Shown here: positions 1,782 to 59,861 of the stretch, one piece after another
How the letters are laid out: each line of letters begins with the position of its first letter
Position numbering within the stretch: the stretch's first letter is position 1
Source of the DNA: Panorpa germanica
Lineage: Eukaryota > Arthropoda > Insecta > Mecoptera > Panorpidae
DNA: 64,000 bases
Assembly (NCBI GenBank): GCA_963678705.1
Contig: OY783204.1
Location: forward strand, 1,240,001 to 1,304,000
Direction of reading: 5' to 3'
The notes under the pieces: generated by a model
The model's input: the letters and a program-made list of their open reading frames with translations, nothing else
Told to the model about the DNA's origin: nothing
Database searches by the model: none
Made by a program: the position numbers and the translations under genes

Positions 1782-3649
1782 CTGAACGTGTAACGAACAC
1801 GTATAAAAACAGACAACAGACATTCAGAGTTACGATAATTTACCTCTACACTAGAGAAATAAACCAAATTGACTTTCTTCCAACTCACCTATGCCCATCT
1901 TATTATCCCATGAGGAAACCTGGATGGAACGACCCCCACAGTAGTTTCTAGCATCCCTCATTGCAGGGTCGCCACTGGTAGACACTGATAACTTATCACC
2001 TTCACAGTTTGTCGACTGTAAATGTGAAAATTGCTGATTAAAGACACTTTTCAGTTCAGTGAATTCAAAGCAGTTCGACCCGGTATAGAAAAACTAGATA
2101 TCCCAAAAAAAAGTTTCGACGTGATGTAAACGCAATACGCGGAGCGCATGTCAATTGTGGATGATGCGAATTTCGGGAATTCAGTCGCTATTGAACACTT
2201 CGCGGAAAACGATAGAGCTATTGCTTAGAGAAAGCCATCATTATTTACCTAACATAAAGCGGTGGTTACCAGGTATTTCGCTCATCAAAAAATGGGTGCG
2301 AATGTTCGAAGCAAAGCGTTCAATTATGAAAAGTTGAAACGACAGTTGGTTTGCGAAACTCCTGACATTTCCATTCGTACACCACAACATGGCAATCAAT
2401 TTGCACCTAAAGCTGCTCTTACACTGGAACAGAGTACTTGCGACGCAATTACGCTTATACGATATTGTACTTGTCCAGTCAGTTTGAATACATACAATTA
2501 GTGGTGTATTGATAAACATTAAAGTAGAACTTGGTACATATAATAAAATGTGCCAATGCGAAACAACTCCTGTACTTTCTACTGAAAATAGTCATCATCG
2601 CAAGTAGGCGGTTCCAATGTGAGAGACCCCATAAGATTCCAATGAGGAGGGTGGGGGTATGTATGAGGTCAAAACGATAAAAGATAAGCATATTTTAGGT
2701 AATGTTTTTTGACGACACAATTAGTATATAGTTATTTCTATAACTACTACATGATAAAATAATATTTAAGGAATACTTTGTGAAATTTGTCACAAAGTCA
2801 TTAACAAGAAAAAGAGTGATTGTCCTTCATAACTCATCACTTGATGATCTCAAATTAAAAAAGCAAAATGATTTAATTAGTTGATAAGTTAAAGCAGGTA
2901 ACGCGATCGAGTTTTTTTTATTTTATTGATTTTTCAATTTTTTACAGCACTTGGAAGTCAAAATATCAATTTTTCATGAAAAAAATCAGAAATTTTGTTA
3001 TTTTAAATTACTTTAAAATTAAAAAAAGAAAAAGAACTCGACAACGCTACCTCAGCATTTATGTAAAGAAAGAGTGTGCACAATTTTAATAGAATCGATG
3101 CTTTAGATTTTGAACTAGAGAGTAAGCTAAGGAAAGAGAAAAGGCGTTGAAAAGTTTCAGAGAAAGACGAAACCAGACCAGAGGTGAAGACTTAAAACTC
3201 TATATCTCCCATAGTTATACTCCAATCCACTTCAAATTTTTACGCAATAAATTTATAATGTTCTACATTAATATAAATCTATAAAAAAAAATTAAAGAGT
3301 TGAAACCTTTCTCCCCCCTTAAACCTCAATTTGTTCAACCATATAAGTGGAATTAATTTTCTGTTATCGAATGAAGCACATTTTCATCTTGTTTCTCGCA
3401 ACTAGGGGAAGGTTCACATTTCAAAAAATTTCAATATGTATTTCAAAAAGCAATGAATATTTTTTAAACAAATGTCTTCTTTGTTTTTAATAGCGATTCA
3501 ATTCACCTCAAACCTAAACCATTAAACTATTTGCTAACAATATCCGCATTGTTTATACGAATTCGATATATGTCTTACTGCGCAGTACATGGTGATAACT
3601 ATTTAAACTATTTTTCTTCGTTTATGTGTTTCTATTGAGTTGTTCTTAC
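1782..3649. other. Protease intron region, missing CUB exon not found
   Basis: Expected to hold the second CUB exon on the minus strand, which I could not locate. ORFs at 2155-2691 on both strands are short and unrecognised. The stretch 2503-2575 resembles 48596-48665 (GTGTAT, GATAAA, ATTAAAGTA and CAAAACAACTCC-like words in the same order), suggesting an old dispersed repeat. Confidence 0.3.
3119..3121 (+). other. Candidate 3-nt microexon (AGA)
   Basis: AG at 3117-3118, triplet AGA, donor GTAAGC from 3122. The acceptor tract is weak, and the site lies opposite an intron of the minus-strand protease. This is the least convincing member of the series. Confidence 0.2.
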
Positions 3650-3883
3650 TTGTGGGATGACAAGACTGCAGCTGAGCTGCAGGATGTTGTTCTCGGGGGC
3701 GCGGATTAACCATCTACAGCTGGTGGAGGCACCGTAACCTCCAGCAATGCGAGTGTTTGCGTTGGTGGTTAGTGTTTGAGTGTAGTCACAATTTTGATAT
3801 TGCGCCCTGCATTGTGCAAACCATTGCACGACTAACAGAAATAAAACTAAAAGAAAACAAACGAAATTGTACAAGTTCAACCA
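3650..3883 (-). CDS. CUB-S1 protease, signal peptide and CUB start exon
   Basis: The minus-strand reading frame has a strong hydrophobic leader (NFVCFLLVLFLLVVQW), a cleavage-like AQCRAQ, then QNCDYTQTL and TSCRWLIRAP, the start of a CUB domain with its first two Cys residues, ending LSCSLVIPQ at a donor GTAAGA (3644-3649). The block between the two Cys residues looks short and lacks the usual Asn-Tyr-Pro motif. The natural start position reads TTG, not ATG, and TGA stands in frame six bases upstream of the open part. Either a start codon lies in an upstream exon joined after AAAG near 3884, or the start is lost and the gene is decaying. The role would be a secreted protease with a CUB binding module. 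Confidence 0.6.
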
Positions 3884-4434
3884 CTTTCAGCTGTTTGAAC
3901 AGAATAATTATAAGGAAATGAACTTACCAAACATTTTTCACACACCAACAGGTCTATCACTATTAGCAAAATAAGTAAAACGAAAAGAAAACACTTCTCT
4001 TTATGCGATGGAAGCGGATGGTTGTATTTGCAATGGTAGGTATTTATAATCGTGTATTTACAGAACAATTGTGTTATTAGTTTAACACGTGTTAAAAATA
4101 AATTACTATAAATATTGCCCGCAAGTAAACAACCAGTGACGACGGCAGGCTGTACTATAGCAGGACCACAAATATCAAATTATTTCTTAATAAGTCGAAA
4201 TATTGTAGGAGACCTTTCAATGAAACTACCAAACCAGGCGAACTGGGGGACCACTCGATATCATCACTTTTTGACATTATTCAATTGGGAAAAGTTTCAG
4301 CTCAATTTGCATCGTAGCACAAGCTGTGTAATGTTAAACCCCATGCGTTAAATAATACAATTCAAGCTCAAGAAAAACAACAAGTGCTCCAACATGTAAC
4401 GCTAACGATATATATCACGTTGTATATATATATA
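3884..4434. other. Upstream flank of the protease
   Basis: On the minus strand an ATG followed closely by donor GTAAGT near 3926-3940 and a pyrimidine-rich acceptor ending AAACAG at 3891 look like a short upstream exon and intron, but the phases I tried lead to a stop. A 78-codon ORF at 4115-4351 (+) is unrecognised. Confidence 0.25.
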
Positions 4435-5056
4435 TGTGGAAAGAACAAATAAATCAAGCAAACAAAGAACTCATAACTATGACACCCGTTCTAAGAAAGT
4501 CATAAAGAATGTGATTAATGAGGGTATGTTTTAAATAGAAACCAAGTGAAAGGTCGAAGCAATTATATTGTGTGAAACTTTAAACCAGTGACTGAATACG
4601 TAAGGGATGTGTTTACTAAAATTAACCAGGCGCATTCTTGGAAGTAATAAAAACAAACCTTTTTAAAGTCAAGCTGAAAACTAATGTAGGACTGAGTATA
4701 TATTAGCTAGAACTTAAGGTGGTGTATGCATTCATTGTTCTGTAGTTGTAAAGTAAACACCAACGTTTATATTGTAACCTTATTGTATTATTAGCATTAT
4801 TATTATCATTATTATTATCATCGTTATTATTTTATTCAATAAATGTATTAAACCAATTATGTGATTCTTTATCATCCTGACAAACCAACTAAGATATTAC
4901 ATAGTTGAATATTAATTGAATTGACATTTGCCCTAAATTAAATAAGAGTACCTTGATTCCACATCAGATTAGCGGATTGGTTATTGTTTTCCACATAAGA
5001 AGTTGGATAGTTCTTGTTTTCCACATTAGAGGTGGCATGGTACTCTCGTTTTCACA
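4435..5056 (+). repeat. 5' LTR
   Basis: TG at the start and CA at the end, 622 bp, nearly identical to the 3' LTR. It carries a copy of the last codons of the element's coding region (frame from YDTRSKK to EGMF), because the ORF runs into the 3' LTR. An AATAAA-like word lies in the ATT-rich middle. Confidence 0.85.
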
Positions 5057-5364
5057 TCAGAAGTGCGGATTAGCAGCTCGTAGCGAATTGAACTAAGTGC
5101 GCGAAGTGAATAATACAAAGAAGTGCGGATTAGTAACTCATAGTGAATTGAACTAAGTGCGGATTAGTAGCTCATAGCGAATTGAACTAAGTGCGCAAAG
5201 TGAATAATACAAAGAAGAATAATACAAGATAGTTTTCTACAAACAGTGCTTTCAAGTGATAATTCATTAGCGGAATAGTCGAGAATTTATAAGACGGACT
5301 TTATAATAGGACTAGCAAGTGAATTGTATCAGAAAAGTGTGTAAACTGTTTTACGAGGAGAAAA
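5057..5364 (+). repeat. Leader with tandem repeats
   Basis: Between the LTR and gag, a unit starting GTGCGGATTAG and containing GAATTGAACTAAGTGCG occurs at about 5063, 5125 and 5158, the middle one shortened. No primer-binding site starting TGG directly abuts the LTR, so the priming tRNA is not evident. Confidence 0.6.
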
Positions 5365-6906
5365 TTGAAAATGGCATATAACGTAAACATGAACGATACT
5401 ACTGTGGAAGATAGTTTGTTAGCTGGACGCTCAGGAAACTCAACATCTAATGAAGATAGGCTTAGAACAGAACTATTGCAGTTGAGTATCAGGAACAGTA
5501 CAATACAGGAACAGAAAATGAATCATCATGGGTTTATGCCGACACAGAACCTGGAATGTATACCTGTGTTTAACCCAGCAAGCACGGTATTGACGGCTAC
5601 AGCTTGGGTGCGAAAATTGGAGAAAATAGCAGACATTTATGGATGGAGTGATAAAGTGAAGCTTCATCAAGGTGTCAACAAGCTGCAGTGTGCCGCGAAA
5701 AACTGGTTTGATGCTAGTTTGAACGTAGTCAAGGATTGGACGACGTTCAAATACGAATTAATCAGGAATTTTCCAGTGGAGTACGATGAATCTGACGTAC
5801 ACATGGAACTAATGAAGAGACAACGAGAAACAAACGAAGCAATAGAAGATTATGTTTACTCGGTGAAAGCGATTGCCAGTAAGAGTGATAATATCAACAA
5901 AGACAACAAAGACTTGATAAGTGTGTTATCAATGTGCGACTTTAAAACAGTGCCCGATTTGTTGTTAAAAGTAAAACGTTACGATTCGACACTATTGCAA
6001 GTGCAAGAAAGGAATAATTTTAGTGTACGTAAGGACAGAACAAAAGACTCAAACGCGATAAAATGTTTTAATTGTAATGAACTTGGACATAAAGAAAACG
6101 TGTGCCGAAAAAGCAACGAATACCTTAATAGTAGAAGAGATGAATCAAGTGAAAAGATAAAAAGTGAAAGTAAAATAAAGTGTTTTAAATGTCACGAAGA
6201 GGGACATATTTCGAGAAATTGTACCGCGAATAAAACGAGTGATGCTTTGTTAGTGAACACAAATAAAACATGTAATATGACAAAAGACATGAGCATAGAC
6301 AGTATCAGTTTTAAATGTCTGATTGATACCGGAAGTGATCAGAATTTGATTAGAGCTGACGACTTCATTAAATTAAGTAATAAAGCGGTTGTGCGCGAAA
6401 ACAATATTGTATTGACTGGAATCGGAGGATTTAAAATCAAAGTTTTGGGTGAATTTAGTGCTCAAGTGAAAGTAGACAATGAACAGTACTGTACTAACTT
6501 TTTAATAGTTCCATCAAGTACAACTAGACATAGTGTTGTAATTGGTAAACCTCTGCTAGATCAAGTAGAAACCACAATAAGTGTAGACGGTATTACCATG
6601 CGAAAAAAGTACGAGAAAAGTGAGCAGAATAAAATATTAGGTGTAGCCGACGACGAAATCGTCATGGGTAATAACATTAGTCCAGGTACCAGGGCTAAAG
6701 TTGAGGAACTACTAAAAACTTATGAACCAAAAGTAACAAGGGTTACTGAAGCAGCAGAAATATACATGACCGATGAGGTTCCTGTTTTTTCAAAATTCGC
6801 GACGTATGGCTTACTGCGAACAAGAAGAAGCGGAGAAGCATGTAGAAACCTGGCTGAACGACGGCAAGGTCGAAGAGCAAGCATTAAACAAAACTTATCA
6901 GCGTAG
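5365..6906 (+). pseudogene. Gag-protease polyprotein with start of RT
   Basis: The 513-codon frame encodes a Gag capsid-like region, two CCHC zinc knuckles (CFNCNELGHKENVC near residue 234 and CFKCHEEGHISRNC near 273) and an aspartic protease with DTGSD at residues 321-325 and a later VIGKPLLD. Past about 6790 it shifts out of the natural frame: the start of reverse transcriptase, with the RRMAY and EAEKHVETWLNDG motifs, continues in the next frame, so a one-base indel lies around 6795-6805. Gag and protease look intact. Zinc knuckles bind the element's RNA and the protease would cut the polyprotein. Confidence 0.75.
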
Positions 6907-7378
6907 CATAAATACTACACCGTTCAAGTTGTTAACAGGTGTGACAATGAAAACAGAAGATGAGACGCATATCTCTCAGCTGCTAGAAGAAGGTAACCGA
7001 GAAATGCGAGAGGACGATTTGCAAGAGTTACGTGTTAACGCCCAGAAACAAATATTGAAAACACAGGAAGAGAATCCCAGGAATTTCAATAGAAATAGGA
7101 AACCAGCTAGGACATACAAAATCGGAGACATTGTGGCTGTAAACCACATAAAGCCATGGGGTGTGTTCTCAGACGACAGCGATTCTGAAACTGTAGATGT
7201 TGTGTCAGGTGCCGAACCGCAACCAGATGACCGCAGTGACGTATCGTCTTTAGGGGCCAAAGAAAAGTCGGACGGCCGTGTGGAAAGAACAAATAAATCA
7301 AGCAAACAAAGAACTCATAACTATGACACCCGTTCTAAGAAAGTCATAAAGAATGTGATTAATGAGGGTATGTTTTAA
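6773..7378 (+). pseudogene. RT stub fused to integrase C-terminus
   Basis: The frame opens with the first residues of a gypsy-type reverse transcriptase (EEAEKHVETWLNDGKVEE) and, near 6885, passes into integrase C-terminal sequence (NTTPFKLLTG, then a basic linker and KIGDIVAVNHIKPW). Everything between is deleted, a typical internal loss. The acidic tail (DDSDSETVD) and basic end run about 100 bp into the 3' LTR and stop at 7378, so the LTR doubles as coding sequence. The ATG at the track start is not a natural start. Confidence 0.7.
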
Positions 7379-7900
7379 ATAGAAACCAAGTGAAAGGTCG
7401 AAGCAATTATATTGTGTGAAACTTTAAACCAGTGACTGAATACGTAAGGGATGTGTTTACTAAAATTAACCAGGCGCATTCTTGGAAGTAATAAAAACAA
7501 ACCTTTTTAAAGTCAAGCTGAAAACTAATGTAGGACTGAGTATATATTAGCTAGAACTTAAGGTGGTGTATGCATTCATTGTTCTGTAATTGTAAAGTAA
7601 ACACCAACGTTTATATTGTAACCTTATTGTATTATTAGCATTATTATTATCATTATTATTATCATCGTTATTATTTTATTCAATAAATGTATTAAACCAA
7701 TTATGTGATTCTTTATCATCCTGACAAACCAACTAAGATATTACATAGTTGAATATTAATAGAATTGACATTTGCCCTAAATTAAATAAGAGTACCTTGA
7801 TTCCACATCAGATTAGCGGATTGGTTATTGTTTTCCACATAAGAAGTTGGATAGTTCTCGTTTTCCACATTAGAGGTGGCATGGTACTCTCGTTTTCACA
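7279..7900 (+). repeat. 3' LTR
   Basis: Starts TGTGGA and ends TTTTCACA, followed by TATATA that matches the 5' flank. It contains the stop codon of the integrase-tail ORF. Confidence 0.85.
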
Positions 7901-8396
7901 TATATATATATGCAATATTTATGCATTTATATATATTTATGTATTTATATATATTTGTTTAATTAATATAGACGGTACGTGTTATATTATTATAAAATGA
8001 TCTGTAATAGACAGTGGACGGCATTAAATATTTAATAAATAATTTTTATTTATAAAATATTCTGCTTAAGATATAAGTAATACATTAAAATCTTTAGCTG
8101 ACTAAATGGTTGATTTGGTGTCATAAACCTCCAGTAATATGAAAAAGTTCGCAGCCTCGCGATTTGGTAGAATAATGAAACTATCCCTGAAAATACGAAA
8201 TCATCTCCTCCCTCTTGCAAATTTTCCCTCTTCTAAAATTTCTTTCTACGAAGTCTGCAATTATTATATCTTTATATACAAGAATTTGCAGATTATAATT
8301 TAGTTTAAATTCTCAAAATGATTTTTTAAAGTTTGTTCATCCTGTTTTACACACCGGAGCTCTAAGCTATACTGATCAATATTAATAACATAACAG
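7901..8396. other. AT-rich stretch right of the LTR element
   Basis: Begins with TA-rich simple sequence into which the element inserted. No gene is recognised. Confidence 0.3.
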
Positions 8397-8399
8397 GAA
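8397..8399 (+). other. Candidate 3-nt microexon (GAA)
   Basis: Acceptor AACATAACAG ending at 8396, triplet GAA, consensus donor GTAAGT from 8400; an ACTGAT branch-like word lies about 25 nt upstream. Confidence 0.35.
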
Positions 8400-9462: not shown

Positions 9463-9465
9463 AAT
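9463..9465 (+). other. Candidate 3-nt microexon (AAT)
   Basis: T-rich acceptor TATTTTTATTCAAG, triplet AAT, donor GTAAGT from 9466. Confidence 0.45.
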
Positions 9466-9803: not shown

Positions 9804-9806
9804 TTA
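9804..9806 (+). other. Candidate 3-nt microexon (TTA)
   Basis: Acceptor TTCTTTTAATGTACAG ending at 9803, triplet TTA, donor GTAAGT from 9807. Confidence 0.45.
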
Positions 9807-9809: not shown

Positions 9810-10995
9810 AGTTGATGAGCACACCAGAACATTGACTTGTGAAGACTAAACATGACTCATTAGAGGACATTTTGATACTCAATACTTACTATCGTAATTC
9901 TATTTAATTTTGGTTATATCAATTACGCTATGATACAGGCCCGAGAAGTAATTACAGATTTATTTTCTTCAAATTAAAGAAAATTAATATAATTATATAA
10001 TAAAATATAGGATTAACAACATATATGCAACCCTCATTACATTAAGCCTTGTTCCCATGGCATGTGGTTTTCCGAGCCTTGTTTGCAACGTGTCATACCT
10101 CGCGTCGTGGGAACTTAAATACTTGATGTGACTGGGGTGTCCCATAGCACCCATTCCCATAGCCTGTTGCACATTGTGAAACATCGTGGTTTTCAAGTAA
10201 TGTTCTAGTAGTCATTTTGTAGTTTCAGGTTCAGTTCATTATGAAGGAATACTTTGTCGTCACTCTCCGTTTCATAAACTATTCATTCTTCTTGAAAATT
10301 ATTTCCCTTTGCATTTTACTAGTGTTATTTAAAGCAAGTTTTTAAAAAGAGAATCCAATTTTACTTGCAAATACTTCTTTATACAACTAATTAAATATAA
10401 GTGAACATTTAATATTATACTATTTTTGTACACTATTTGCCTAAAATAAATATTTAAAAATCATGTCCTTAAAGAGAAAACGGTTGAAATAAATAACGCA
10501 GATCTTATTCCAGCAAGACTAAGCAAATCAGGCTGTCACTTGACACTTGTGGCAGTCTGGTGTCCAAAACTACTAATGTGCATGCAGTATTACGTTGTGA
10601 CGTAAACTGAAGTTTTCCTTTCATGGAAAGTCAAATGAAAATGCAGCTTAGACTTTATTTACATTCTTTCTTACAATGGAATACTATGGAAAATGTACCG
10701 TTGAAAATTAAAATATTTATAACATAAAGTGCACTTTCCTCAATACAGGAATTACACAAGGTGCTCGAAAAGGAATTTTCTTTTCTCCAAAGAAGACGAC
10801 TACTAAAAAAAACATTTATTGATTGCTACTCGTAAAATACAGACATTTGAATATATTTTTTTAAATGATGTTATACAAATGTATATATGTAATAACTAGA
10901 CTGTGAGTGAAATGTGTTTTGAGGAATATATTTAGCCAACTCACTGAAAACAATATCACCAATCAAACTTCTGTTTGTTAAATACAAATGAATAG
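9810..10995. other. Putative intron, unannotated
   Basis: No recognised gene. A plus-strand ATG at 10241 opens 34 hydrophobic codons resembling a signal peptide but stops in frame without a good donor. Confidence 0.25.
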
Positions 10996-10998
10996 GCG
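10996..10998 (+). other. Candidate 3-nt microexon (GCG)
   Basis: Acceptor ATGAATAG, weak in pyrimidines, triplet GCG, donor GTAAGT from 10999. Confidence 0.35.
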
Positions 10999-11784: not shown

Positions 11785-14700
11785 ATGCCACCGAAGAAAT
11801 CTAACCTCAACAACGCGAGGAGCACAAAGGCACGACGCAAACGCGTTGAAAGAGCTCATCAGTCGGCAGAACAAATCACAATAAGAAATGCAGCAAATGT
11901 AGAGCGTCGTGCACAAGAATGTCAAGAACAGCGTGACGAACGTCTGCGACAGAATATTGCAAGAACAAGAGCGGCACGAGTACGAGAACGACAGAGGCAG
12001 CGTTTGTTCGTCTTGCTTTCGAATATGCACCAGATATTAACTACTCTGCGCATTCAAAAATTGCTATCGGTGCAATGGATAAAGTATGCCAATATTGTCA
12101 GGCATTGAAATTTCGAAATGAAACACCCGGCATGTGCTGCGCATCGGGAAAAGTTGTGCTGTCACCTCTACCCACTCCGCCGGAACCTTTATTATCCCTT
12201 CTTGCTGGTGATTCAGATGATTCAAAATTATTTTTGCGTAAGATCCGCAAATTTAATTCTTGCTTCCAAATGACGTCATTTGGGGCAACTAAAATTTGCG
12301 ATCTCGCATCCCATGGACGTAATTTTGAAACTACATTCAAAATACAAGGCCAAGTGTACCATAAAATCGGATCATTGATGCCGATGCCTGATAATGATTC
12401 GAAATTTCTCCAAATTTATTTTATGGGCAATTGTGAAGAGCGCGTAACAACTCGGTGCCAGTATAATTTCATTGAACAAGCAGAGGAAAGAGCAATCGTG
12501 ATGTTGCTGGAAAATTTTTTAGAAGATCAGAATCAACTAATTCGATTGTTTAAAAGAGTTTCGCCACGATTGCAAAATGACAACTATCAAATCGTCATAA
12601 AAGCCGACAAAGTACCATTAGGTGAAAATGCTGGTAGATTCAATGCTCCAACTGTTGACGAGGTTGCTGTTATTATGGTTGGTGATCCAGTTGACAACAG
12701 AGCTATAAAAATTACACGGCGAGACAACACTGTCAGTACGATTTCAGATCTTCACCGTTCATATGATGCACTACAATATCCATTAATATTTTGGCAAGGA
12801 CAGGATGAATATCATATTAATATCAAACAGTGTGATCCAAATACCGGTAAATTTGACTATTAACTATGTATTTCCTAACTGTATGAACGGATTTTGATTT
12901 CTTTTTTCATTTTATTTTTTATTTTTTTAGGCGCTAATGGAAATAAAAAAGTTAGTTCTATGAACTACTACGCACACCGATTGATGGTTAGACTAAATCA
13001 GGACAACTATATCCTTCGATATCGTCAGCTATTCCATCAGTACATTGTTGATATGTATGCTAAGGTTGAAAGCGAACGCTTGCGATTTCTTCGATATAAC
13101 CAGGCTAAATTACGATCAGAAGAATACATTCACTTACGAGATGCTGTTGTTGGAAACATCGACGGAAATTTAAACCCCAATGACATCGGTAATGCTTTCA
13201 TTTTACCTTCAAGCTACATCGGCAGTCCACGGAACATGCAGGAATACATACAAGATGCGATGACTTACGTACGTCATTACGGCCGACCGGATTTGTTTAT
13301 TACATTCACATGTAATCCAAATTGGAAAGAGATACAAACTTTACTATCACCAGGACAACAAGCACTTCATCGTCATGATATTGTATGTACAAAAATTGAA
13401 ATCCTTAATTGATTTTATTGTTAAATATTCAGTTTTTGGTATCACACGTTGTTGGCTGTATTCGATTGAGTGGCAAAAGCGAGGTTTGCCTCATGCCCAC
13501 ATTTTAATTTGGCTTCAAGATAAAATCCGTCCAGAAGAAATTGATCAAATAATATCAGCCGAAATTCCAGACCCATCAATTGATCAAGAATTATTTGATA
13601 TTGTTACCAAACACATGATCCACGGGCCGTGCGGTGCTTTCAACATAACGTCACCATGCATGGAAAATGGAAAATGTAAGAAAAATTTCCCAAAGCCGCA
13701 CACGAATGACACTATCACGGATATTGACGGTTATCCAATGTATCGCCGTAGAAATACTGAGAATGGTGGCCACACATTCACAATACGACTGCCGAATTTT
13801 ACAAATCAAGTTGAACTTGATAATCAGTGGGTGGTACCATACTCACCATTACTTTCAAAAACTTATCAGGCTCATATCAATGTTGAGCTTTGCAGTTCTG
13901 TAAAATCTATTAAGTACATTTGTAAATATGTAAATAAAGGCAATGATTTAGCTATATTTGAAGTACAGAATGTAAATAAAAATGACGAAATAGTACGATA
14001 CCAAATGGGTAGGTACATTAGCAGCAACGAAGCTATTTGGCATATTCTTAGCTTTCCCATACACGAAAGAGACCCTTCTGTCCAGCATCTAGCAATACAT
14101 CTTGAAAACGGTCAACGTGTATACTTTACTGAAGGAAATGTTCTCCAAAGAGCGCTTGAGGCTCCAAAAACGACACTAACTGAATTTTTTACATTGTGTC
14201 AACAATCTGATATTTTTGGCCAATTCGCAAAAACATTGAAATATAGTGATGTTCCGCGTTATTTCACATGGAACAAATCCGGTAAAAAATGGGAACCACG
14301 AAAGCAAGGAAAACCACATCCTTCCATCACAGGCATATTCAAAGCTAAGACATTGGGGCGACTTTACACGGTACATCCAAAGCAAAGCGAGTGCTTCTAT
14401 TTACGTTTGTTATTGGTGAATGTTCCCGGACCAACGTCTTTTGAATTTCTGCGAACAGTTAATGGTCGAGTATTCAATACATACAAAGATGCATGTCGTG
14501 AACTGCAATTGCTAGAAGATGATAACCATTGGGACTTAACGCTTGCTGATGCTGCGTTAACATCAACGCCCAATAATATTCGTCAGCTGTTTGCAATTAT
14601 TTTGACGACATGTTATCCATCGCAAGCACAAACTTTGTGGGAAAAATATAAAAATTGTATGACAGAAGACATATTGCACCGAATTAGACAAACAGATCAA

Positions 14701-16280
14701 TACCAAAACATAGATTATACGCCAGAGATGTATAATGAAGCGTTACTGTTAATCGAGGATTTATGTGTTTTAATTTCAAATTTACCACTTAATCATTATG
14801 GTATGCCATCACCTGATCGCCCAGCCATGGATTTAGTCAACACCGATTTACAACGAGAAAAACAATTTGACCAAGGTAATTTAGCAACAATTATCGCGAA
14901 GAGCGAGCCATTACTGACAGCAGAACAAAAAATTATTTATGATCGGATTATGCTGGCTGTTGCTGCTGAACAAGGCGGTTTTTTTTTCTTGGACGCACCA
15001 GGTGGAACCGGTAAGACATTTTTAATATCGTTGATTCTTGCCAAAATACGGTCACAACAGAAAATTGCATTGGCAGTTGCATCGTCAGGCATTGCGGCTA
15101 CTTTGCTAGATGGTGGACGAACGGCACATTCAACATTCAAGCTGCCATTGGACATTCATCATAAACCAAATGCAATATGTATCATAAAAAAAAATAGTGG
15201 AATAGCTGCAGTGTTGCGGAAGAGTTCAATTATAATTTGGGATGAGTGCACAATGGCTCACAAATATTCACTCGAAGCATTGCATAGAACTATGCAAGAT
15301 TTAAACGGCAATGATAAACTTTTCGGTGGTGCTCTTTTACTTTTGTCTGGTGATTTCCGCCAGACCCTACCAGTTATACCTCGCTCCACTTTCACGGATG
15401 AAATTAATGCATGTTTGAAACAATCATTCTTATGGCGAAATGTTGAAACACTTCCATTGACCATAAACATGCGCGTACGATTGCAAAATGATCCATCAGC
15501 ACAAATATTTTCCGAACAATTACTAGATATTGGGAACGGTAAAATAGAACTGCAACCAAATACGCAATGCATTAAACTGCCAGACAATGTCTGCACTGTT
15601 TTTCAGGGAAAAAATGAATTGATTCAGAGTATTTTTCCGGATATACGAGTAATTACTTAAATCATAACTGGCTCAGTCATCGGGCTATTTTGGCAGCCAA
15701 AAATGTTGATGTTGACGAAATTAACTTCCAGATACAACAGTTGTTACCAGGCAATCTGATGTCTTTCAAATCAATAGATACTGTTGTTAATGAAAATGAT
15801 AGTGTAAATTTTCCAATTGAATTTTTAAATTCACTAGATATACCTGGAATGCCACCACATAATCTTCGATTAAAGATTGGTTCACCTATTATTCTCCTGC
15901 GTAATTTGAATCCACCTCAATTATGCAACGGTACGCGTTTGGTCGTCAAAAAGATCACCGGAAATATTATTGAAGCAACTATTTTAAGTGGAAAGTTTAA
16001 AGGGAAAGTGGTCCTATTGCCACGTATTCCAATGATACCGTCAGATTCTACCATACCCTTTAGAAGATTACAGTTTCCAATTCGTTTAGCTTTTGCCATG
16101 TCTATAAATAAGTCTCAAGGCCAAACAATGTCCATTTGTGGTTTACATTTGGAAAATCCATGTTTTTCTCATGGGCAGCTATATGTTGCATGTTCACGTG
16201 TAGGAAAACCGTCAAACCTATTTGTGTTAGCTAAAGACAGGTTAACCAAAAATATTGTGCACCAATTGGTGCTACATTAA
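11785..16280 (+). pseudogene. Helitron Rep/helicase, frameshifted
   Basis: A basic leader frame (11785-12108) shifts near 12000 into 12075-12863, which starts CQYCQALKFRNE, the Helitron N-terminal zinc region. An intron-like gap leads to 12894-13412, and a frameshift near 13385 to 13375-15660. That frame has the Rep motif LPHAHILIWL (HUH histidines) and YICKYVNKG (catalytic Tyr region), then the helicase motifs GGTGKT (Walker A, near 15001), WDECT (Walker B) and GDFRQTLPVIP. A further shift near 15650 leads to 15690-16280 with SINKSQGQT and VACSRVG, helicase motifs V-VI. All domains for rolling-circle transposition are present, only the frame is broken. Confidence 0.85.
12847..12930 (+). other. 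Intron inside the Helitron gene
   Basis: GTAAAT at 12847 and a T-rich acceptor TATTTTTTTAG ending at 12930 bound 84 bp that contain stop codons. Removing it joins Asn-Thr-Gly to Ala-Asn-Gly and on to KKVSSMNYYAHR in frame, which restores the family's usual order at this point. The fit is by motif only; no transcript is available here. Confidence 0.7.
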
Positions 16281-16970: not shown

Positions 16971-16973
16971 TTT
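16971..16973 (+). other. Candidate 3-nt microexon (TTT)
   Basis: Acceptor TTTTTGATTGTATACAG ending at 16970, triplet TTT, donor GTAAGC from 16974. Confidence 0.45.
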
Positions 16974-17579: not shown

Positions 17580-17582
17580 GTT
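17580..17582 (+). other. Candidate 3-nt microexon (GTT)
   Basis: Acceptor TTTATTTTTTAAAG, triplet GTT, donor GTAAGC from 17583. Confidence 0.4.
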
Positions 17583-18568: not shown

Positions 18569-18571
18569 ATA
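18569..18571 (+). other. Candidate 3-nt microexon (ATA)
   Basis: Acceptor TGGTTTACGAGCAG, triplet ATA, donor GTAAGT from 18572. It lies about 65 bp left of a LINE remnant, outside it. Confidence 0.4.
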
Positions 18572-19908: not shown

Positions 19909-19911
19909 ATG
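19909..19911 (+). other. Candidate 3-nt microexon (ATG)
   Basis: Acceptor TATTATGTTCCAAAG, triplet ATG, donor GTGAGT from 19912. Confidence 0.35.
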
Positions 19912-20822: not shown

Positions 20823-20825
20823 ACA
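20823..20825 (+). other. Candidate 3-nt microexon (ACA)
   Basis: Acceptor with TTTTCTTTATTGG upstream, ending AAACAG at 20822; triplet ACA; donor GTAAGT from 20826. Confidence 0.4.
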
Positions 20826-21660: not shown

Positions 21661-21663
21661 CTG
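21661..21663 (+). other. Candidate 3-nt microexon (CTG)
   Basis: Among the best acceptors in the series, CTTTCATTGTTTTCAG, preceded by more C/T; triplet CTG; donor GTAAGA from 21664. Confidence 0.5.
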
Positions 21664-22203: not shown

Positions 22204-22206
22204 GAA
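22204..22206 (+). other. Candidate 3-nt microexon (GAA)
   Basis: Acceptor TTATTGTAACATGAAG, triplet GAA, donor GTAAGT from 22207. Confidence 0.35.
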
Positions 22207-23515: not shown

Positions 23516-23518
23516 TGT
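23516..23518 (+). other. Candidate 3-nt microexon (TGT)
   Basis: Acceptor TTCCGATATTATATTAG, triplet TGT, donor GTAAGT from 23519. Confidence 0.4.
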
Positions 23519-24788: not shown

Positions 24789-24791
24789 ATT
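24789..24791 (+). other. Candidate 3-nt microexon (ATT)
   Basis: Acceptor CATTACTACGGATACGAACAG-like, with a CTTCC tract upstream; triplet ATT; donor GTAAGT from 24792. Confidence 0.45.
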
Positions 24792-25391: not shown

Positions 25392-25394
25392 GCG
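25392..25394 (+). other. Candidate 3-nt microexon (GCG)
   Basis: Acceptor CATTATAAAATTTAAG, weak; triplet GCG; donor GTGAGT from 25395. Confidence 0.3.
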
Positions 25395-28689: not shown

Positions 28690-28692
28690 TGT
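28690..28692 (+). other. Candidate 3-nt microexon (TGT)
   Basis: Acceptor CATCTAATTGAAATAG, triplet TGT, donor GTAAGT from 28693; just right of the LRR copy. Confidence 0.4.
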
Positions 28693-29099: not shown

Positions 29100-29102
29100 G
29101 TA
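29100..29102 (+). other. Candidate 3-nt microexon (GTA)
   Basis: Pyrimidine-rich acceptor ACTTTTCTTATATAG, triplet GTA, donor GTAAGT from 29103. Confidence 0.5.
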
Positions 29103-31464: not shown

Positions 31465-31467
31465 TCA
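31465..31467 (+). other. Candidate 3-nt microexon (TCA)
   Basis: Acceptor TAATTTCGCTCTGCAG, triplet TCA, donor GTAAGT from 31468. Confidence 0.45.
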
Positions 31468-34059: not shown

Positions 34060-34268
34060 GAAAACATCAATATATAAATTAAGTTTATTTTTTAATAAAA
34101 ACTCTATTCACATCACTAAACCAAATCGATTAATAAATTTACTAAAATATTAAATCAACTATATCAACTATATAAATTATATAAACATAAAGAAAAAATA
34201 AAATATATAAATAAATCGAAAAACAAGACATCAGATATAAAAATTAATCATTAATTAAAACAGTTAAA

Positions 34269-35564: not shown

Positions 35565-35569
35565 AAATG

Positions 35570-37480
35570 AAGTAAATTTCGCGTTAAATCATAATAAAAA
35601 CAGTAGCACAGGATTTGATAGAATAAATTACAAAATGATACAAAACTTACCTGACAATGCAATAAATCATCTTACACAAATATATAATCTGTCATTAAAC
35701 ACTGCTGATATACCATTAGACTGGAAAAAACATATCGTTGTTCCTATATTAAAACCAGGAAAAGATCCAAACAAAGAAGAATCATTCAGACCAATTGCTT
35801 TACTATCATGTATGGGCAAAACTATGGAATCCATCATCAAAAACAGACTGGAGTGGTATCTCGAACATCATAAAAGATTACCTGAGTTACAATTTGCGTT
35901 TAGAAAAACAAGAAGTACGCAGCATAACTTAAACATATTGAATATCGATATTCAAAGAACATACAGTAAAAATCATTATATGATAGCTGCTTTCATTGAC
36001 ATTGAAGCTGCTTATGACAATGTTAATCTAAAAATATTAAAAGAAAAAGTAGAAAACATAGGTATATCTTCCAAAATATCCAACTGGATTATAAACTACT
36101 TCCAAAATAGAGAAATAACAGTTAGATACAATAATAAGTTAACTGGTCCTATACTATGTAATCACGGAATTCCACAAGGCTCAATATTATCTCCCTTATT
36201 ATTCAACATATACACAGAAAAGTTAACAACATTATCAGATAACAACACAACAGTACTGATGTATGCAGATGACATGGTTATTTATAGTATGGGCCATACA
36301 CAAGATATAGCTCAAAACAGATTACAATCGAAATTAAGAAAACTAGATATTTTACTAAAGGAAATCAAATTAAATATATCGTCAGAAAAAAGTAAAATAG
36401 TTATATTTACAAGGCATAGAATAAACTGCAGTCCAAAAATAACCATCAGAAATAAAAATATAACTGTTAGTTCAAATACCAAATTTCTGGGTATATTCTT
36501 TGATACGAAAAGCATGACAACAATACATACAGAAATAAATTTGTTCAAGAAGAATGACAGTAAGGAAATAACTTATCAAAAATATATGGAATATATAACA
36601 AAAGATGATATAAACTGGAGTATATGGTTTACCGATGGTTCATTCGAAAAAAACTCTAAAACTGGAGGAATTGGCATTTTCAATTATAATACAGATCAAC
36701 AGTACAAATACAAACTTAACAACATCACAAATTCTTATAATACAGAAATAACAACAATTATGAAATTACTAGAAATAATACAAAAAACTGACAATAAAAA
36801 TATATTAATCTTCACAGATTCTCGTAGTGTTTGTGTATCTTTAAATAACAATAAATTCAAAAACAATAATAATAACAAAATATGTTCAATTAAAGAATAT
36901 CTTTTAAAAATGGAAAAAAATGATATCAATGTTAAACTTATTTGGATTCCTGGACATGTAGGCATAAAAGGAAACGAAATGGCTGACAAACTGGCCAAAG
37001 AAGCTTGTGTAGATGGGGAAATAATCGAAATAAATTGGTCAATAAATGATTCCAAAAAAATAATTAAAGAAAATTGTATGGCAGAATGGCAGAATATATA
37101 TAATGAGAAAAGTCAAAGTACTGGAAAAATTTTTTTTGCAGCGAATCAAAAAATTCCAACAACCACATGGTTTAATAAAAACCATTCACGAAGATATATT
37201 TCAACAAATTGTGAAATGAATGAAATCTGGGCATTCTAGATGTCCAGCTCATCTATACAAAATAAATATAAAAGACACACCAAATTGTAGATGTGGAGAA
37301 GAAGGTTCTTTGGACCATATAATTCTAGGGTGTCATCTTTTAGCATAAAAAATTGATAGACTTTTAAATGATTTATGTAATGTAGCACAGTTCCCAGTTA
37401 ATATGTCCTGTTTAATGACAAGTGAAGCAACGGCGGAAATAGTAACAAACTTTGTGATAGAAAATAATATAGAAGTGTAA
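35570..37480 (+). pseudogene. LINE ORF2, reverse transcriptase, RNase H and tail
   Basis: The 35635-37239 frame carries RT motifs: SFRPIALLS, AAFIDIEAAYDNV (motif A), GIPQGSILSPLLF (motif B) and MYADDMVIY (motif C). After KFLGIFFDTKS the usual thumb and connection region of some 200 residues is missing, and the frame goes straight to RNase H (WFTDGSFE, IFTDSRSV, WIPGHVGIKGNEMADKLAKEA). A frameshift near 37200 puts the C-terminal motif (NCRCGEEGSLDHIILGC) in another frame to a stop near 37480. The thumb loss should abolish polymerase activity. Confidence 0.75.
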
Positions 37481-37914: not shown

Positions 37915-37917
37915 GAA
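37915..37917 (+). other. Candidate 3-nt microexon (GAA)
   Basis: Acceptor AATTGTACACACAG, triplet GAA, donor GTAAGT from 37918. The donor context matches the 8397 site (CAG-GAA-GTAAGT) but the flanks differ. The next site is 117 nt on. Confidence 0.4.
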
Positions 37918-38032: not shown

Positions 38033-38035
38033 GTG
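38033..38035 (+). other. Candidate 3-nt microexon (GTG)
   Basis: Strong acceptor CTTGTATTTGCAG with a CTAAC branch-like word just upstream, triplet GTG, donor GTATGT from 38036. Confidence 0.45.
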
Positions 38036-39612: not shown

Positions 39613-39615
39613 GAC
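39613..39615 (+). other. Candidate 3-nt microexon (GAC)
   Basis: Acceptor CTTTGGATTCAAATAG, triplet GAC, donor GTAAGA from 39616. Confidence 0.35.
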
Positions 39616-40890: not shown

Positions 40891-41624
40891 GTCCAAGATC
40901 CCAGACCGATCTAACATAACTTATTTTCAAAAGCATAGAACTTTCGGTTCTAAGTAGTCTCTACATGTACCTTTAATACCTGCGTATTTGTGGAGTTCGC
41001 TCGGTGATACCTGGGCAGGTACCAGGTGAGAAAGGTAACTAAAAATCAGAGTTACTTTACTTTAATTGTATGACTGATTTTTAAATATATTTTGTAGAAT
41101 GTTATTTCTGAAGTAAAATTAAAAGTGTAAGACGCTTTCCATTGGCCAGAACTTTTGTCAGACGCTTTAAAGCAAAAACATGTTAGTGGTCTCATAAACA
41201 CAACTACACTATATACTATATACTGTATATAATAAGGTGTACGCAATAGTATATACGCATACATATAGACTGAAACAGATTGTAAGTTTAGGAAGGGGAA
41301 CCGAGTCACCATGGATGTCAAGTTAATTTATTTTTTACAGAGCTTTAAAGCGTCTGACAAAAGTTCTGGCCCATGGAAAGCGTCTGACACTTTTAATTTT
41401 ACTTCAGAAATAACATTCTACAAAATATATTTAAAAATCAGTCATACAAATTTAAGTAAAGTAACTCTGATTTTTAGTTACCTTTCTCACCTGGTACCTG
41501 CCCAGGTGTCACCGAGCGAACTCCACAAATACGCAGGTATTAAAAGTACATGTAGAGACTACTTAGAACCGAAAGTTCTATGCTTTTGAAAATAAGTTAT
41601 GTCAGATCGGTCTGGGATCTTGGT
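40891..41624. repeat. Long inverted repeat (283-bp arms)
   Basis: The left arm 40891-41173 and right arm 41342-41624 are reverse complements over almost their whole length, with a handful of mismatches by eye (for instance TAACATAAC against TGACATAAC). The spacer is 168 bp. Words such as CAAGATCCCAGACCGATCT at the outer and GACGCTTTAAAGC at the inner ends mark the limits. It could be a foldback transposon, or could form a long hairpin RNA feeding siRNA. No transposase is encoded and the 92-codon ORF in the right arm is unrecognised. Confidence 0.8.
41279..41281 (+). other. Candidate 3-nt microexon (ATT)
   Basis: Acceptor ATATAGACTGAAACAG, triplet ATT, donor GTAAGT from 41282. It sits in the spacer of the long inverted repeat, so an RNA hairpin could expose it in the loop. 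Confidence 0.35.
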
Positions 41625-42092: not shown

Positions 42093-42095
42093 CGG
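42093..42095 (+). other. Candidate 3-nt microexon (CGG)
   Basis: Very good acceptor TACTATTCCATTTCCAG, triplet CGG, donor GTAAGC from 42096; 150 nt to the next acceptor. A TTTAAATA word at 41966 with CAGTG about 34 nt on could be a promoter, but this is weak. Confidence 0.5.
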
Positions 42096-42245: not shown

Positions 42246-42248
42246 AAA
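42246..42248 (+). other. Candidate 3-nt microexon (AAA)
   Basis: Acceptor TGTATGTTATATACACAG, triplet AAA, donor GTAAGA from 42249. Confidence 0.4.
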
Positions 42249-43871: not shown

Positions 43872-43874
43872 TAT
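43872..43874 (+). other. Candidate 3-nt microexon (TAT)
   Basis: Acceptor AAATCAATGTCTACAG, triplet TAT, donor GTATGT from 43875; 108 nt to the next acceptor. Confidence 0.35.
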
Positions 43875-43982: not shown

Positions 43983-43985
43983 GCT
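43983..43985 (+). other. Candidate 3-nt microexon (GCT)
   Basis: Acceptor CAACCATTTACTGAAAG, triplet GCT, donor GTGAGT from 43986. Confidence 0.35.
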
Positions 43986-44083: not shown

Positions 44084-44086
44084 CGC
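44084..44086 (+). other. Candidate 3-nt microexon (CGC)
   Basis: Very good acceptor GTTCTTGTTTCCAACAG, triplet CGC, donor GTAAGA from 44087; 98 nt after the previous donor. Confidence 0.5.
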
Positions 44087-44170
44087 GTAAGACATTCTAA
44101 AATAACAATTACTGATGTATGAACGATTGTTTGCCAATAGAAGTAACATATATAATTAACACACTAACAG

Positions 44171-44173
44171 TCA
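44171..44173 (+). other. Candidate 3-nt microexon (TCA)
   Basis: Acceptor ATTAACACACTAACAG, triplet TCA, donor GTATGT from 44174; 84 nt after the previous donor. Confidence 0.3.
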
Positions 44174-46941: not shown

Positions 46942-46944
46942 CAT
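46942..46944 (+). other. Candidate 3-nt microexon (CAT)
   Basis: AG at 46940-46941 after TTATAGT, triplet CAT, donor GTAAGC from 46945. An alternative AG gives six bases. Confidence 0.3.
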
Positions 46945-47213: not shown

Positions 47214-47216
47214 GAT
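47214..47216 (+). other. Candidate 3-nt microexon (GAT)
   Basis: Very good acceptor CTATCATTATCGTAATCAG with more T/C upstream, triplet GAT, donor GTAAGG from 47217. Confidence 0.5.
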
Positions 47217-47632: not shown

Positions 47633-47635
47633 GCA
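47633..47635 (+). other. Candidate 3-nt microexon (GCA)
   Basis: Acceptor ATTGCTCCTATAG, triplet GCA, donor GTAAGT from 47636; 139 nt to the next acceptor. Confidence 0.45.
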
Positions 47636-47774: not shown

Positions 47775-47777
47775 ACA
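47775..47777 (+). other. Candidate 3-nt microexon (ACA)
   Basis: Acceptor TTTTTGCAACAACAG, triplet ACA, donor GTAAGA from 47778; 102 nt to the next acceptor. Confidence 0.45.
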
Positions 47778-47879: not shown

Positions 47880-47882
47880 GAT
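47880..47882 (+). other. Candidate 3-nt microexon (GAT)
   Basis: Acceptor GTTTATTTGCAAAACATAG after a CTTTTCTTTG tract, triplet GAT, donor GTATGT from 47883. Confidence 0.45.
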
Positions 47883-48116: not shown

Positions 48117-48119
48117 ATA
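48117..48119 (+). other. Candidate 3-nt microexon (ATA)
   Basis: Acceptor CTTGTTCACAATAACAG, triplet ATA, donor GTAAGC from 48120; 90 nt to the next acceptor. Confidence 0.45.
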
Positions 48120-48209: not shown

Positions 48210-48212
48210 TGC
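48210..48212 (+). other. Candidate 3-nt microexon (TGC)
   Basis: Acceptor TTATGTCTGAAAAG, triplet TGC, donor GTAAGT from 48213. Confidence 0.35.
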
Positions 48213-48914: not shown

Positions 48915-49002
48915 ATGTCCTGGACAACGGAAATGTTAGAAGTATTACTTCAAATACACTTTGTTCTGAGCTTCTTCTTTGTTATCAACACACAAACAGC
49001 CC
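48915..49002 (+). CDS. Possible first coding exon with signal peptide
   Basis: ATG opens 29 codons: a short polar start (MSWTTEMLEVLLQ), a hydrophobic core (FVLSFFFVI) and NTQTA, a good signal-peptide cleavage site, ending one base into a codon at donor GTGAGT (49003). If real it is the first exon of a secreted protein whose next exons would be the 3-nt candidates at 49803, 51779 and beyond. A competing reading is that the T/C-rich bases are only the polypyrimidine tract of another 3-nt microexon (CCC, 49000-49002), since AG at 48998-48999 keeps the same spacing. Confidence 0.35.
49000..49002 (+). other. Candidate 3-nt microexon (CCC), alternative reading
   Basis: Acceptor ATCAACACACAAACAG after CTTCTTCTTTG, triplet CCC, donor GTGAGT from 49003. 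Mutually exclusive with the signal-peptide exon interpretation. Confidence 0.35.
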
Positions 49003-49802: not shown

Positions 49803-49805
49803 TTT
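49803..49805 (+). other. Candidate 3-nt microexon (TTT)
   Basis: Acceptor GACATTGTTTTACAG, triplet TTT, donor GTAAGT from 49806. Confidence 0.45.
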
Positions 49806-51778: not shown

Positions 51779-51781
51779 GGA
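51779..51781 (+). other. Candidate 3-nt microexon (GGA)
   Basis: Acceptor ATTTTGTCTAATCAG, triplet GGA, donor GTAAGT from 51782; only 79 nt to the next acceptor. Confidence 0.45.
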
Positions 51782-51860: not shown

Positions 51861-51863
51861 TGC
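51861..51863 (+). other. Candidate 3-nt microexon (TGC)
   Basis: Acceptor CTTTCTGCATAACTAG, triplet TGC, donor GTAAGT from 51864. Confidence 0.45.
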
Positions 51864-58363: not shown

Positions 58364-58366
58364 GCC
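58364..58366 (+). other. Candidate 3-nt microexon (GCC)
   Basis: Acceptor GTGATTCAACATCGCAG after CTACATCTAC, triplet GCC, donor GTATGT from 58367. Confidence 0.4.
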
Positions 58367-58957: not shown

Positions 58958-58960
58958 AAT
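58958..58960 (+). other. Candidate 3-nt microexon (AAT)
   Basis: Acceptor AATATTTTAATTAATAG, triplet AAT, donor GTAAGT from 58961. Confidence 0.4.
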
Positions 58961-59193
58961 GTAAGTATATGCAACTGCTAAACAAAAGTCATGTACTATT
59001 TAATGATAAAAATGTACGTAATGTTACGTTTTATTATTCACTGGCGCTGAATAATGCAAAGCATGAACTAGATAAAACATAAACATAACTTTGTACAAAG
59101 GACCTAAACACGCCACACAACAACTAGCCGCTAAATGAAATCTCTTTGAGTTAATGAATTTGCTTTAAAATATTTGATATATTTAACTCACAG

Positions 59194-59196
59194 ACT
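59194..59196 (+). other. Candidate 3-nt microexon (ACT)
   Basis: Acceptor GATATATTTAACTCACAG, triplet ACT, donor GTAAGT from 59197. Confidence 0.45.
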
Positions 59197-59199
59197 GTA

Positions 59200-59858
59200 A
59201 GTATAGTCAAATCAATATCGATTTATAATCGATATCAGCACCTAGCAGCTTAGCACCCTTTCCTCGCATTTCTCGGTAGAAGCAGTGGCTAATTATTCTC
59301 GTTTATGGCTATAAATGACCATTTTTTAACTTTCATACGTAAACCAATTATATCCGGTTGCTTTCCAGCCTATCTGAAATTAATTTTTATTTATCAGCTT
59401 TCACCACGCAAATTACATTATTGAATTGTCAATCTATTTCAATCGATAAGTTACCAAAAAATCTAGATCTGGTTGGTAAAATGCAGGTCCAGGAACACTG
59501 GAATTTATTTTTTGTTAAAAAAGAACTTAAAAAAGTATCTTCTAAAACAATTGCACAAAACAATGAACATATAGCGAAATTAATTTTGGCAGAAACTTTG
59601 TAAAATGAAAGTTACGACAGTTTATATTTTAAAAATTATCGAAAACTATACTATGTATATGTGTTGTGTACCTAAAAAAATTATCTATACTTAATACAGG
59701 TGAAACGAAAAGATTAGAAAAAATTAATTTTATTATGAACTGATGGTATGAGTGGAAAACCGTTGCGTGTTCAAAACGAAAAAAAGCTAAATTCCTGGAA
59801 GGTATTTTCACTTCCCAGCAATACTTATACTTACATTATATTTACATTTACTCCACAG
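59200..59858. other. Putative intron with an unrecognised ORF
   Basis: The 81-codon frame at 59358-59603 ends KVSSKTIAQNNEHIAKLILA; no family recognised and no splice context. Confidence 0.25.
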
Positions 59859-59861
59859 GCA
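59859..59861 (+). other. Candidate 3-nt microexon (GCA)
   Basis: Acceptor TTACATTTACTCCACAG, triplet GCA, donor GTGAGT from 59862; the last member of the series in the window. Confidence 0.4.

What the first reader, a model, noticed from the sequence alone, without database searches (positions are those of the whole stretch)
3119..59861. Series of about 45 acceptor-NNN-donor sites: a possible gene made of 3-nt exons
On the plus strand I find 45 places where AG is followed by exactly three bases and a strong donor (GTAAGN, GTGAGT, GTATGT or GTACGT). Many have clear pyrimidine tracts and branch-like words (21661, 29100, 38033, 42093, 44084, 47214, 47880). For this base composition I would expect only a few AGs at that exact offset from GTAAG by chance. 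The same search on the minus strand gave about three, in low-complexity or weak contexts. Flanks of different sites are unrelated, so it is not a dispersed repeat. Bicycle genes of aphids and MEG genes of schistosomes are known microexon genes, but uniform 3-nt exons would be new to my knowledge. Recursive (ratchet) splicing with a 3-nt core is the main alternative.
Basis: partly seen in the sequence, partly recalled or inferred. Interest (0 to 1): 0.95.

Follow-up and report, generated by a model that had tools for sequence, protein, structure and literature searches.

The report
Gene of three-base exons
A 57,000-base stretch of DNA, probably from an animal, carries 48 splice-site pairs that each enclose exactly three bases, which looks like a gene whose small protein is spliced together about one codon at a time.

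Summary
On the + strand 48 places read AG-NNN-strong donor (reader: about 45). The other spacings from 0 to 500 give a mean of 5.2 (sd 2.3, maximum 13), and the minus strand gives 5 at spacing 3. The sites look like splice sites: T-rich, G-poor tract, C or T before AG in 41 of 48, mostly GTAAG donors, neighbours at least 82 nt apart. None of 48 lies in nested transposon or gene ORFs, against 46 of 141 weak decoys. GTAAGT is scarce elsewhere on that strand: 6, against 20 on the minus strand.

Best explanation: one gene with about 48 internal exons of exactly 3 nt, spliced stepwise, each step adding three bases and a fresh donor. Coding is supported, not proved. One codon per exon gives a stop-free 48-residue peptide with an early hydrophobic run. 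A shifted register, split as in aphid bicycle genes, gives a Cys-rich peptide with one stop and fits about equally well. Gene ends, species and transcripts are unknown. Nine literature searches listed no gene of uniform 3-nt exons; preprints and most subscription journals were not searchable. Microexon genes are known, so I call this an extreme new variant.

The parts
3119..3121 (+). 3-nt exon 1 of series, AGA (R); doubtful
   Evidence: leave-one-out score 10.0, weak acceptor
7972..7974 (+). 3-nt exon, ACG (T)
   Evidence: score 11.4
8397..8399 (+). 3-nt exon, GAA (E)
   Evidence: score 13.0
9463..9465 (+). 3-nt exon, AAT (N)
   Evidence: score 12.9
9804..9806 (+). 3-nt exon, TTA (L)
   Evidence: score 17.8
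10900..10902 (+). 3-nt exon, ACT (T)
   Evidence: score 14.0
10996..10998 (+). 3-nt exon, GCG (A)
   Evidence: score 16.8
16971..16973 (+). 3-nt exon, TTT (F)
   Evidence: score 14.0
17580..17582 (+). 3-nt exon, GTT (V)
   Evidence: score 12.7
18569..18571 (+). 3-nt exon, ATA (I)
   Evidence: score 13.7
19909..19911 (+). 3-nt exon, ATG (M)
   Evidence: score 11.9
20823..20825 (+). 3-nt exon, ACA (T)
   Evidence: score 20.3
21661..21663 (+). 3-nt exon, CTG (L)
   Evidence: score 12.7
22204..22206 (+). 3-nt exon, GAA (E)
   Evidence: score 15.5
23516..23518 (+). 3-nt exon, TGT (C)
   Evidence: score 12.4
24789..24791 (+). 3-nt exon, ATT (I)
   Evidence: score 16.9
25392..25394 (+). 3-nt exon, GCG (A)
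   Evidence: score 11.1
28690..28692 (+). 3-nt exon, TGT (C)
   Evidence: score 12.1
29100..29102 (+). 3-nt exon, GTA (V)
   Evidence: score 18.9
30040..30042 (+). 3-nt exon, TGG (W); doubtful
   Evidence: score 9.4
30209..30211 (+). extra candidate 3-nt exon, ACG (T), donor GTCAGT; not among the 48
   Evidence: score 14.1
30298..30300 (+). 3-nt exon, GTT (V)
   Evidence: score 19.2
31339..31341 (+). 3-nt exon, GGG (G)
   Evidence: score 15.2
31465..31467 (+). 3-nt exon, TCA (S)
   Evidence: score 14.1
37915..37917 (+). 3-nt exon, GAA (E)
   Evidence: score 18.4
38033..38035 (+). 3-nt exon, GTG (V)
   Evidence: score 14.7
39613..39615 (+). 3-nt exon, GAC (D)
   Evidence: score 16.2
41279..41281 (+). 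3-nt exon, ATT (I)
   Evidence: score 13.6
42093..42095 (+). 3-nt exon, CGG (R)
   Evidence: score 14.0
42246..42248 (+). 3-nt exon, AAA (K)
   Evidence: score 15.1
43872..43874 (+). 3-nt exon, TAT (Y)
   Evidence: score 11.7
43983..43985 (+). 3-nt exon, GCT (A); doubtful
   Evidence: score 6.8, lowest of the 48
44084..44086 (+). 3-nt exon, CGC (R)
   Evidence: score 14.3
44171..44173 (+). 3-nt exon, TCA (S)
   Evidence: score 16.2
46942..46944 (+). 3-nt exon, CAT (H)
   Evidence: score 13.2
47214..47216 (+). 3-nt exon, GAT (D); doubtful, makes the one stop of the shifted register
   Evidence: score 10.2
47633..47635 (+). 3-nt exon, GCA (A)
   Evidence: score 17.4
47775..47777 (+). 3-nt exon, ACA (T)
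   Evidence: score 18.2
47880..47882 (+). 3-nt exon, GAT (D)
   Evidence: score 14.4
48117..48119 (+). 3-nt exon, ATA (I)
   Evidence: score 11.7
48210..48212 (+). 3-nt exon, TGC (C)
   Evidence: score 13.6
49000..49002 (+). 3-nt exon, CCC (P)
   Evidence: score 19.0
49803..49805 (+). 3-nt exon, TTT (F)
   Evidence: score 14.3
51779..51781 (+). 3-nt exon, GGA (G)
   Evidence: score 17.1
51861..51863 (+). 3-nt exon, TGC (C)
   Evidence: score 16.1
58364..58366 (+). 3-nt exon, GCC (A); doubtful
   Evidence: score 9.5
58958..58960 (+). 3-nt exon, AAT (N)
   Evidence: score 18.1
59194..59196 (+). 3-nt exon, ACT (T)
   Evidence: score 20.5
59859..59861 (+). 3-nt exon, GCA (A), last of series
   Evidence: score 17.6
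2642..2656 (+). weak candidate end of a first coding exon (ATG, 5 codons, donor GTATGTATGA); not claimed
   Evidence: donor score 8.8
4435..7901 (+). LTR retrotransposon lying in an interval between sites
   Evidence: LTRs 99.5% alike; gag, zinc knuckle
11785..16280 (+). Helitron lying in an interval between sites
   Evidence: Helitron_like_N, PIF1
32632..37239 (+). LINE lying in an interval between sites
   Evidence: RVT_1, RNase_H

Best explanation
The + strand carries one gene, at least 57 kb long, with about 48 internal exons of exactly 3 nt separated by introns of 79 to 6,500 nt. Three bases cannot carry acceptor and donor machinery at the same time, so I infer stepwise, mostly 5'-to-3' splicing: the growing mRNA is joined to a triplet, which brings a near-perfect GTAAGT-type donor to its end; that donor then attacks the next acceptor, and each turn adds three bases. 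It works like recursive splicing except that every turn leaves a triplet in the mRNA. The product is most likely a small protein encoded at one residue per exon; whether each exon is a whole codon or a split codon is not settled. Shown: the sites, their strand, spacing, splice-signal quality and absence from nested elements. Inferred: splicing, its order, translation.
For: 48 sites at k=3 on + against a mean of 5.2, maximum 13, at the other k from 0 to 500, and 5 on minus. T-rich, G-poor tract and YAG in 41 of 48, unlike 141 decoys. Neighbours at least 82 nt apart; 48 random points would have no gap under 80 in 4% of draws. 0 of 48 in nested ORF spans against 46 of 141 decoys, Fisher 2.7e-7. 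GTAAGT off the sites: 6 on +, 20 on minus, 17.8 expected; GTRAGT 8 against 28. Whole-codon reading has no stop; bases 1 and 2 depart from background and base 3 does not; hydrophobic run depends on codon order, p 0.011 for an 18-residue window. Codon model p 0.012 in whole-codon and 0.005 in shifted register against column shuffles.
Against: No RNA, no relative, no first or last exon. Coding evidence is modest: with column composition kept, absence of stops has p 0.086; against a model with fitted column composition neither register gains bits; base 2 is not unusual against weak-site triplets (p 0.15); the hydrophobic test is not significant for a 10-residue window (p 0.20); G at base 1 may be acceptor consensus. 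Two registers compete. No branch-point word is clearly enriched. Broader donor words are less depleted off the sites. Nothing explains why no exon is 6 or 9 nt long.
Confidence: 0.72

Rival explanations
1. The triplets are stepping stones for stepwise removal of one long intron or lie in an untranslated leader; they are spliced but are not code.
For: Sites have splice signals and the coding evidence vanishes against a model with fitted column composition.
Against: A noncoding stepping stone has no reason to be exactly 3 nt; stops and codon-model tests lean to coding in two registers. Ratchet points proper are AG|GT and depend on a cryptic exon with its own donor (PMC8605326, abstract and passages); here AG and GT are 3 nt apart, and second donors within 20-250 nt downstream are 3 of 48 at the strict threshold (random 6.9), though 16 of 48 at a looser one (random 12.0, sd 2.8).
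Confidence: 0.12
2. It is a divergent bicycle-type salivary effector gene of an aphid or relative, with exons starting at codon position 2.
For: The shifted register is the one in which nearly all bicycle exons start (PMC9168663, passages); it gives 7 Cys against 3.5 expected and two C-V-C words.
Against: No CYC motif; one stop; exons are all 3 nt while bicycle genes average about 17 exons and megacycle genes encode about 2000 residues. Species untested.
Confidence: 0.08
3. It is a decayed gene: the sites are real but the locus no longer makes a protein.
For: No gene ends found; many nested insertions.
Against: Splice signals are strong and uniform, stray donors are scarce, and no triplet is a stop in the whole-codon register.
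Confidence: 0.05
4. Chance, base composition, or a DNA motif unrelated to splicing.
For: No RNA evidence of splicing is in hand.
Against: Poisson 1e-29 for 48 against 5.19; simulations reach at most 11; a mere motif would not bring the tract, the intron-like spacing and the scarcity of free donors.
Confidence: 0.02

Closest known systems
Micro-exon genes (MEG) of schistosomes and tapeworms
   Same: Many tiny exons, lengths mostly divisible by three, long introns, small proteins; skipping can change single residues (PMC10526429, PMC7653826, abstract and passages).
   Different: 10-20 short exons, 6-81 bp in the text (3-81 in the abstract), mostly 15 bp; here about 48, all 3 nt.
Bicycle and megacycle genes of aphids, phylloxerans and scale insects
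   Same: Many small internal exons in one register; megacycle has 118 exons in about 100 kb (PMC9168663, passages and section 12).
   Different: Exon lengths vary and add up to larger proteins; no CYC motif here; register not settled.
Drosophila ratchet points (recursive splicing)
   Same: Composite acceptor-donor units used one after another.
   Different: AG and GT are 3 nt apart, not juxtaposed, so the triplet stays in the mRNA.
Single 3-nt exons (Ncam, Drosophila TnT and homothorax) and the 1-nt exon of Arabidopsis APC11
   Same: Show that exons this short can be spliced.
   Different: One per gene as described in the passages seen, not a run of dozens.

Membership tests
Micro-exon gene by the counting rule in PMC7653826 | at least 7 exons, half or more under 70 nt and divisible by three, run of 4 or more | tested here: inconclusive
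   Met by the predicted exons, but the exons are predictions without RNA.
Micro-exon gene (schistosome type) | exons of mixed length, mostly 15 bp | tested here: not met
   Only k=3 peaks.
Micro-exon gene (schistosome type) | secreted protein | tested here: inconclusive
   Hydrophobic run near the start in one register, start codon unknown.
Bicycle gene | CYC motifs | tested here: not met
   No CYC in any of the three registers; some bicycle homologues also lack it.
Bicycle gene | internal exons start at codon position 2 | tested here: inconclusive
   Register open.
Bicycle gene | N-terminal signal sequence, salivary expression, aphid relative | not testable with these tools
   Species, first exon and expression unknown.
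Ratchet point | AG|GT juxtaposed | tested here: not met
   k=0 shows 3 sites, background level; 4 of 48 triplets begin with GT.
Ratchet point | cryptic exon with its own donor downstream | tested here: inconclusive
   No excess at threshold 7, slight excess at threshold 6.
Spliceosomal (GT-AG) introns | GT start and AG end (set by the pattern), T-rich tract, minimum length | tested here: met

The most novel reading that the evidence does not exclude
A gene whose protein is assembled one codon per exon by a splicing ratchet that adds one codon per turn. Because each exon is a whole codon, any subset could be skipped without a frame shift, so the locus might make a very large family of peptide variants.
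Probability: 0.35. Interest if true: 0.97.

Novelty: new variant of a known kind. Interest (0 to 1): 0.9.

Why it matters
If true, it is a limit case for the spliceosome: dozens of 3-nt exons in a row, where exon definition cannot work and exon bases give the donor little help (no triplet ends in AG and 9 of 48 end in G). It would make order and fidelity of stepwise splicing testable in one transcript, would point to a class of genes that gene finders and short-read aligners are bound to miss, and would raise the question of how such a gene arises and why about 57 kb is kept for about 150 mRNA bases.

Tried and rejected
Chance or composition: rejected. Dispersed repeat: between flanks of different sites only short, weak matches besides the overlap of neighbours. 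Other exon lengths in the series: no peak. First and last exons: only weak candidates; a first exon was sought in all three registers, a last one in one register. Branch points: no word clearly enriched. Register: unresolved. Known families: Pfam none for either peptide; PDB none for the first, six matches of E 0.9-2 for the second, taken as chance. Rfam: none in the window. Relatives of nested elements, as a way to the species: none for the Helitron ORF in genome contigs or the YqaJ ORF in viral contigs. Papers: searches listed no gene of uniform 3-nt exons; I saw titles and starts of abstracts, and the lists were capped (20 of 10,203, 25 of 26, 25 of 124). Origin through introners whose target duplication supplies the triplet: one search, listing only; no sign of related introns here. 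One slip of mine: the script printed intron lengths as spacing minus 5 (77-6,498); with AG counted to the intron the right figure is spacing minus 3 (79-6,500).
Full report
OBSERVATION. The other spacings from 0 to 500 on + give a mean of 5.19, sd 2.26, maximum 13; 60 simulations each of Markov order 1, 3 and 5 never exceed 11 at k=3. The Poisson chance of 48 or more against 5.19 is about 1e-29. With C or T before AG the peak is 41, against 0-3 at other k from 0 to 12 on + and 0-6 on minus. A weight matrix built on the sites finds 30, 43 and 48 k=3 hits at scores of 16, 14 and 12 (the last two include the extra candidate at 30207); the other 61 combinations of k from 0 to 30 and strand give at most 2, 3 and 6. 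That table leans to k=3 because the matrix was trained there; leave-one-out scores of the 48 run from 6.8 to 20.5.

SPLICE-SITE QUALITY. The tract 18 to 3 bases before AG is 45% T and 10% G, against 31% and 18% at 141 weak AG-N3-GT decoys in the same stretch; the base before AG is C 27, T 14, A 7, G 0, against A 47, T 42, C 34, G 18 at decoys. The donor is GTAAG in 35 of 48. No triplet ends in AG and 9 of 48 end in G, so donor recognition must rest on the intron side, which fits the regular GTAAGT. Neighbours lie 82 to 6,503 nt apart, median 665, which makes introns of 79 to 6,500 nt. At 43,872-44,173 four microexons sit at steps of 111, 101 and 87 nt. No branch-point word is clearly enriched; the pattern YTAAY is in 22 of 48 upstream stretches, against a mean of 14.2 and maximum of 20 in shifted controls.

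SURROUNDINGS. The stretch holds an LTR retrotransposon (4435-7901, LTRs 99.5% alike), a Helitron (11785-16280), an LRR ORF (27162-28385), a LINE (32632-37239), a YqaJ ORF (50174-51325) and two zinc-finger ORFs on the minus strand (53013-53705, 56112-56975). None of the 48 sites lies in these spans (16.5 of 56.7 kb); 46 of 141 decoys do (Fisher 2.7e-7). The five longest intervals are those holding the zinc fingers, LINE, Helitron, LTR element and LRR ORF, so these look like insertions into introns. On + 22 of 28 GTAAGT words are at the sites; the 6 others compare with 20 on minus and 17.8 expected from a first-order model (two-sided binomial p 0.009), and GTRAGT shows 8 against 28 (p 0.0012). 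The broader words are less depleted: GTAAG 34 off the sites against 56 on minus (53.5 expected in all), GT[AG][ACT]GT 57 against 83 (72.2 expected in all). I read this as removal of stray donors from introns; strand composition could contribute.

CODING. Read as whole codons in order, the triplets give RTENLTAFVIMTLECIACVWVGSEVDIRKYARSHDATDICPFGCANTA, without a stop. Weak decoys have 17 stops in 162 (Fisher p 0.015), but with column composition kept 2.1 stops are expected and p is 0.086. Against the window's composition base 1 (p 5e-4) and base 2 (p 0.04) depart and base 3 does not (p 0.84), as for codons with a free third base; against weak-site triplets base 1 departs (p 3e-5) and base 2 does not (p 0.15). 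G at base 1 may partly be acceptor consensus. Codon order matters for a hydrophobic run early in the peptide: permutation p 0.011 for an 18-residue window, 0.015 for 15, 0.040 for 12, 0.046 for 20 and 0.20 for 10.

The register starting at base 3 gives NGKFNCVCYNDTGMYCVCMGWVRSGHSEICSLT*CNRYMPLWMRQYC: 7 Cys against 3.5 expected (p 0.022) and one stop, made with the weak site 47214. Its codon-model p is 0.005 against 0.012 for whole codons, and 0.0007 against 0.009 if that site is left out, a choice made after seeing the stop. The third register has 3 stops and no signal (p 0.35). A Dirichlet codon model on all 48 sites gives gains over neutral background of 5-14 bits for whole codons and 6-10 bits for the shifted register, the order depending on the prior; against fitted column composition neither gains. 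So coding is likely and the register open. Neither peptide matches Pfam; the PDB gives nothing for the first and six chance-level matches (E 0.9-2) for the second.

ENDS. No convincing first or last exon was found. The last 2 kb of the window hold minus-strand ORFs that I take for reverse transcriptase of a LINE from memory of such proteins; Pfam was asked about one of them only (63595-63966) and gave a sub-threshold match to another family. The series may therefore run on outside the window.

MECHANISM. Three bases between acceptor and donor cannot serve both at once, by established knowledge; the authors of the 1-nt exon paper argue likewise and suggest intron definition combined with recursive splicing (PMC4674806, passages). 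I infer a ratchet in which each joined triplet supplies the next strong donor. Ratchet points proper are AG|GT and need a cryptic exon with its own donor (PMC8605326, abstract and passages). The first is not met; for the second, second donors 20-250 nt downstream are 3 of 48 at threshold 7 (random 6.9) and 16 of 48 at threshold 6 (random 12.0, sd 2.8). Why the length is always three, never six or nine, is unexplained: frame keeping accounts only for multiples of three.

COMPARISON. MEGs have 10-20 short exons, mostly 15 bp (PMC10526429, abstract and passages). Bicycle genes average about 17 exons, nearly all internal ones starting at codon position 2; the M. sacchari megacycle gene has 118 exons for 2092 residues (PMC9168663, passages and section 12). 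Single 3-nt exons are known (PMC8042270 and PMC7392893, passages). By the rule of PMC7653826 (passages) the predicted gene would count as a micro-exon gene, but about 48 exons all of 3 nt is outside anything listed. Hence 'new variant of a known kind'.

LIMITS. No RNA, no relative, no species name; that it is an animal, probably an insect, rests on my reading of the nested elements. The protein database was off and the genome search did not complete.

Noticed in passing
27162-28385: An intact-looking leucine-rich-repeat ORF of 407 residues on the + strand, lying inside one interval between sites: a nested gene or an insertion.
   Followed up: partly
53013-53705 and 56112-56975: Two related C2H2 zinc-finger ORFs on the minus strand with 84-nt internal repeats, a local duplication inside one interval.
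   Followed up: partly
40889-41173 and 41342-41627: Inverted repeat with arms 97% alike, 168 nt apart, possibly a foldback element.
   Followed up: no
42781-43420 and 44622-45158: Duplicated blocks about 90% alike on either side of a cluster of four microexons; the copies themselves hold no site of the series.
   Followed up: no
59184-59205: The site at 59192 is nearly palindromic, so the minus strand also reads acceptor-TCT-donor there (59196).
   Followed up: partly
45301-45696: Minus-strand ORF of 131 residues in the sixth-longest interval, not identified.
   Followed up: no
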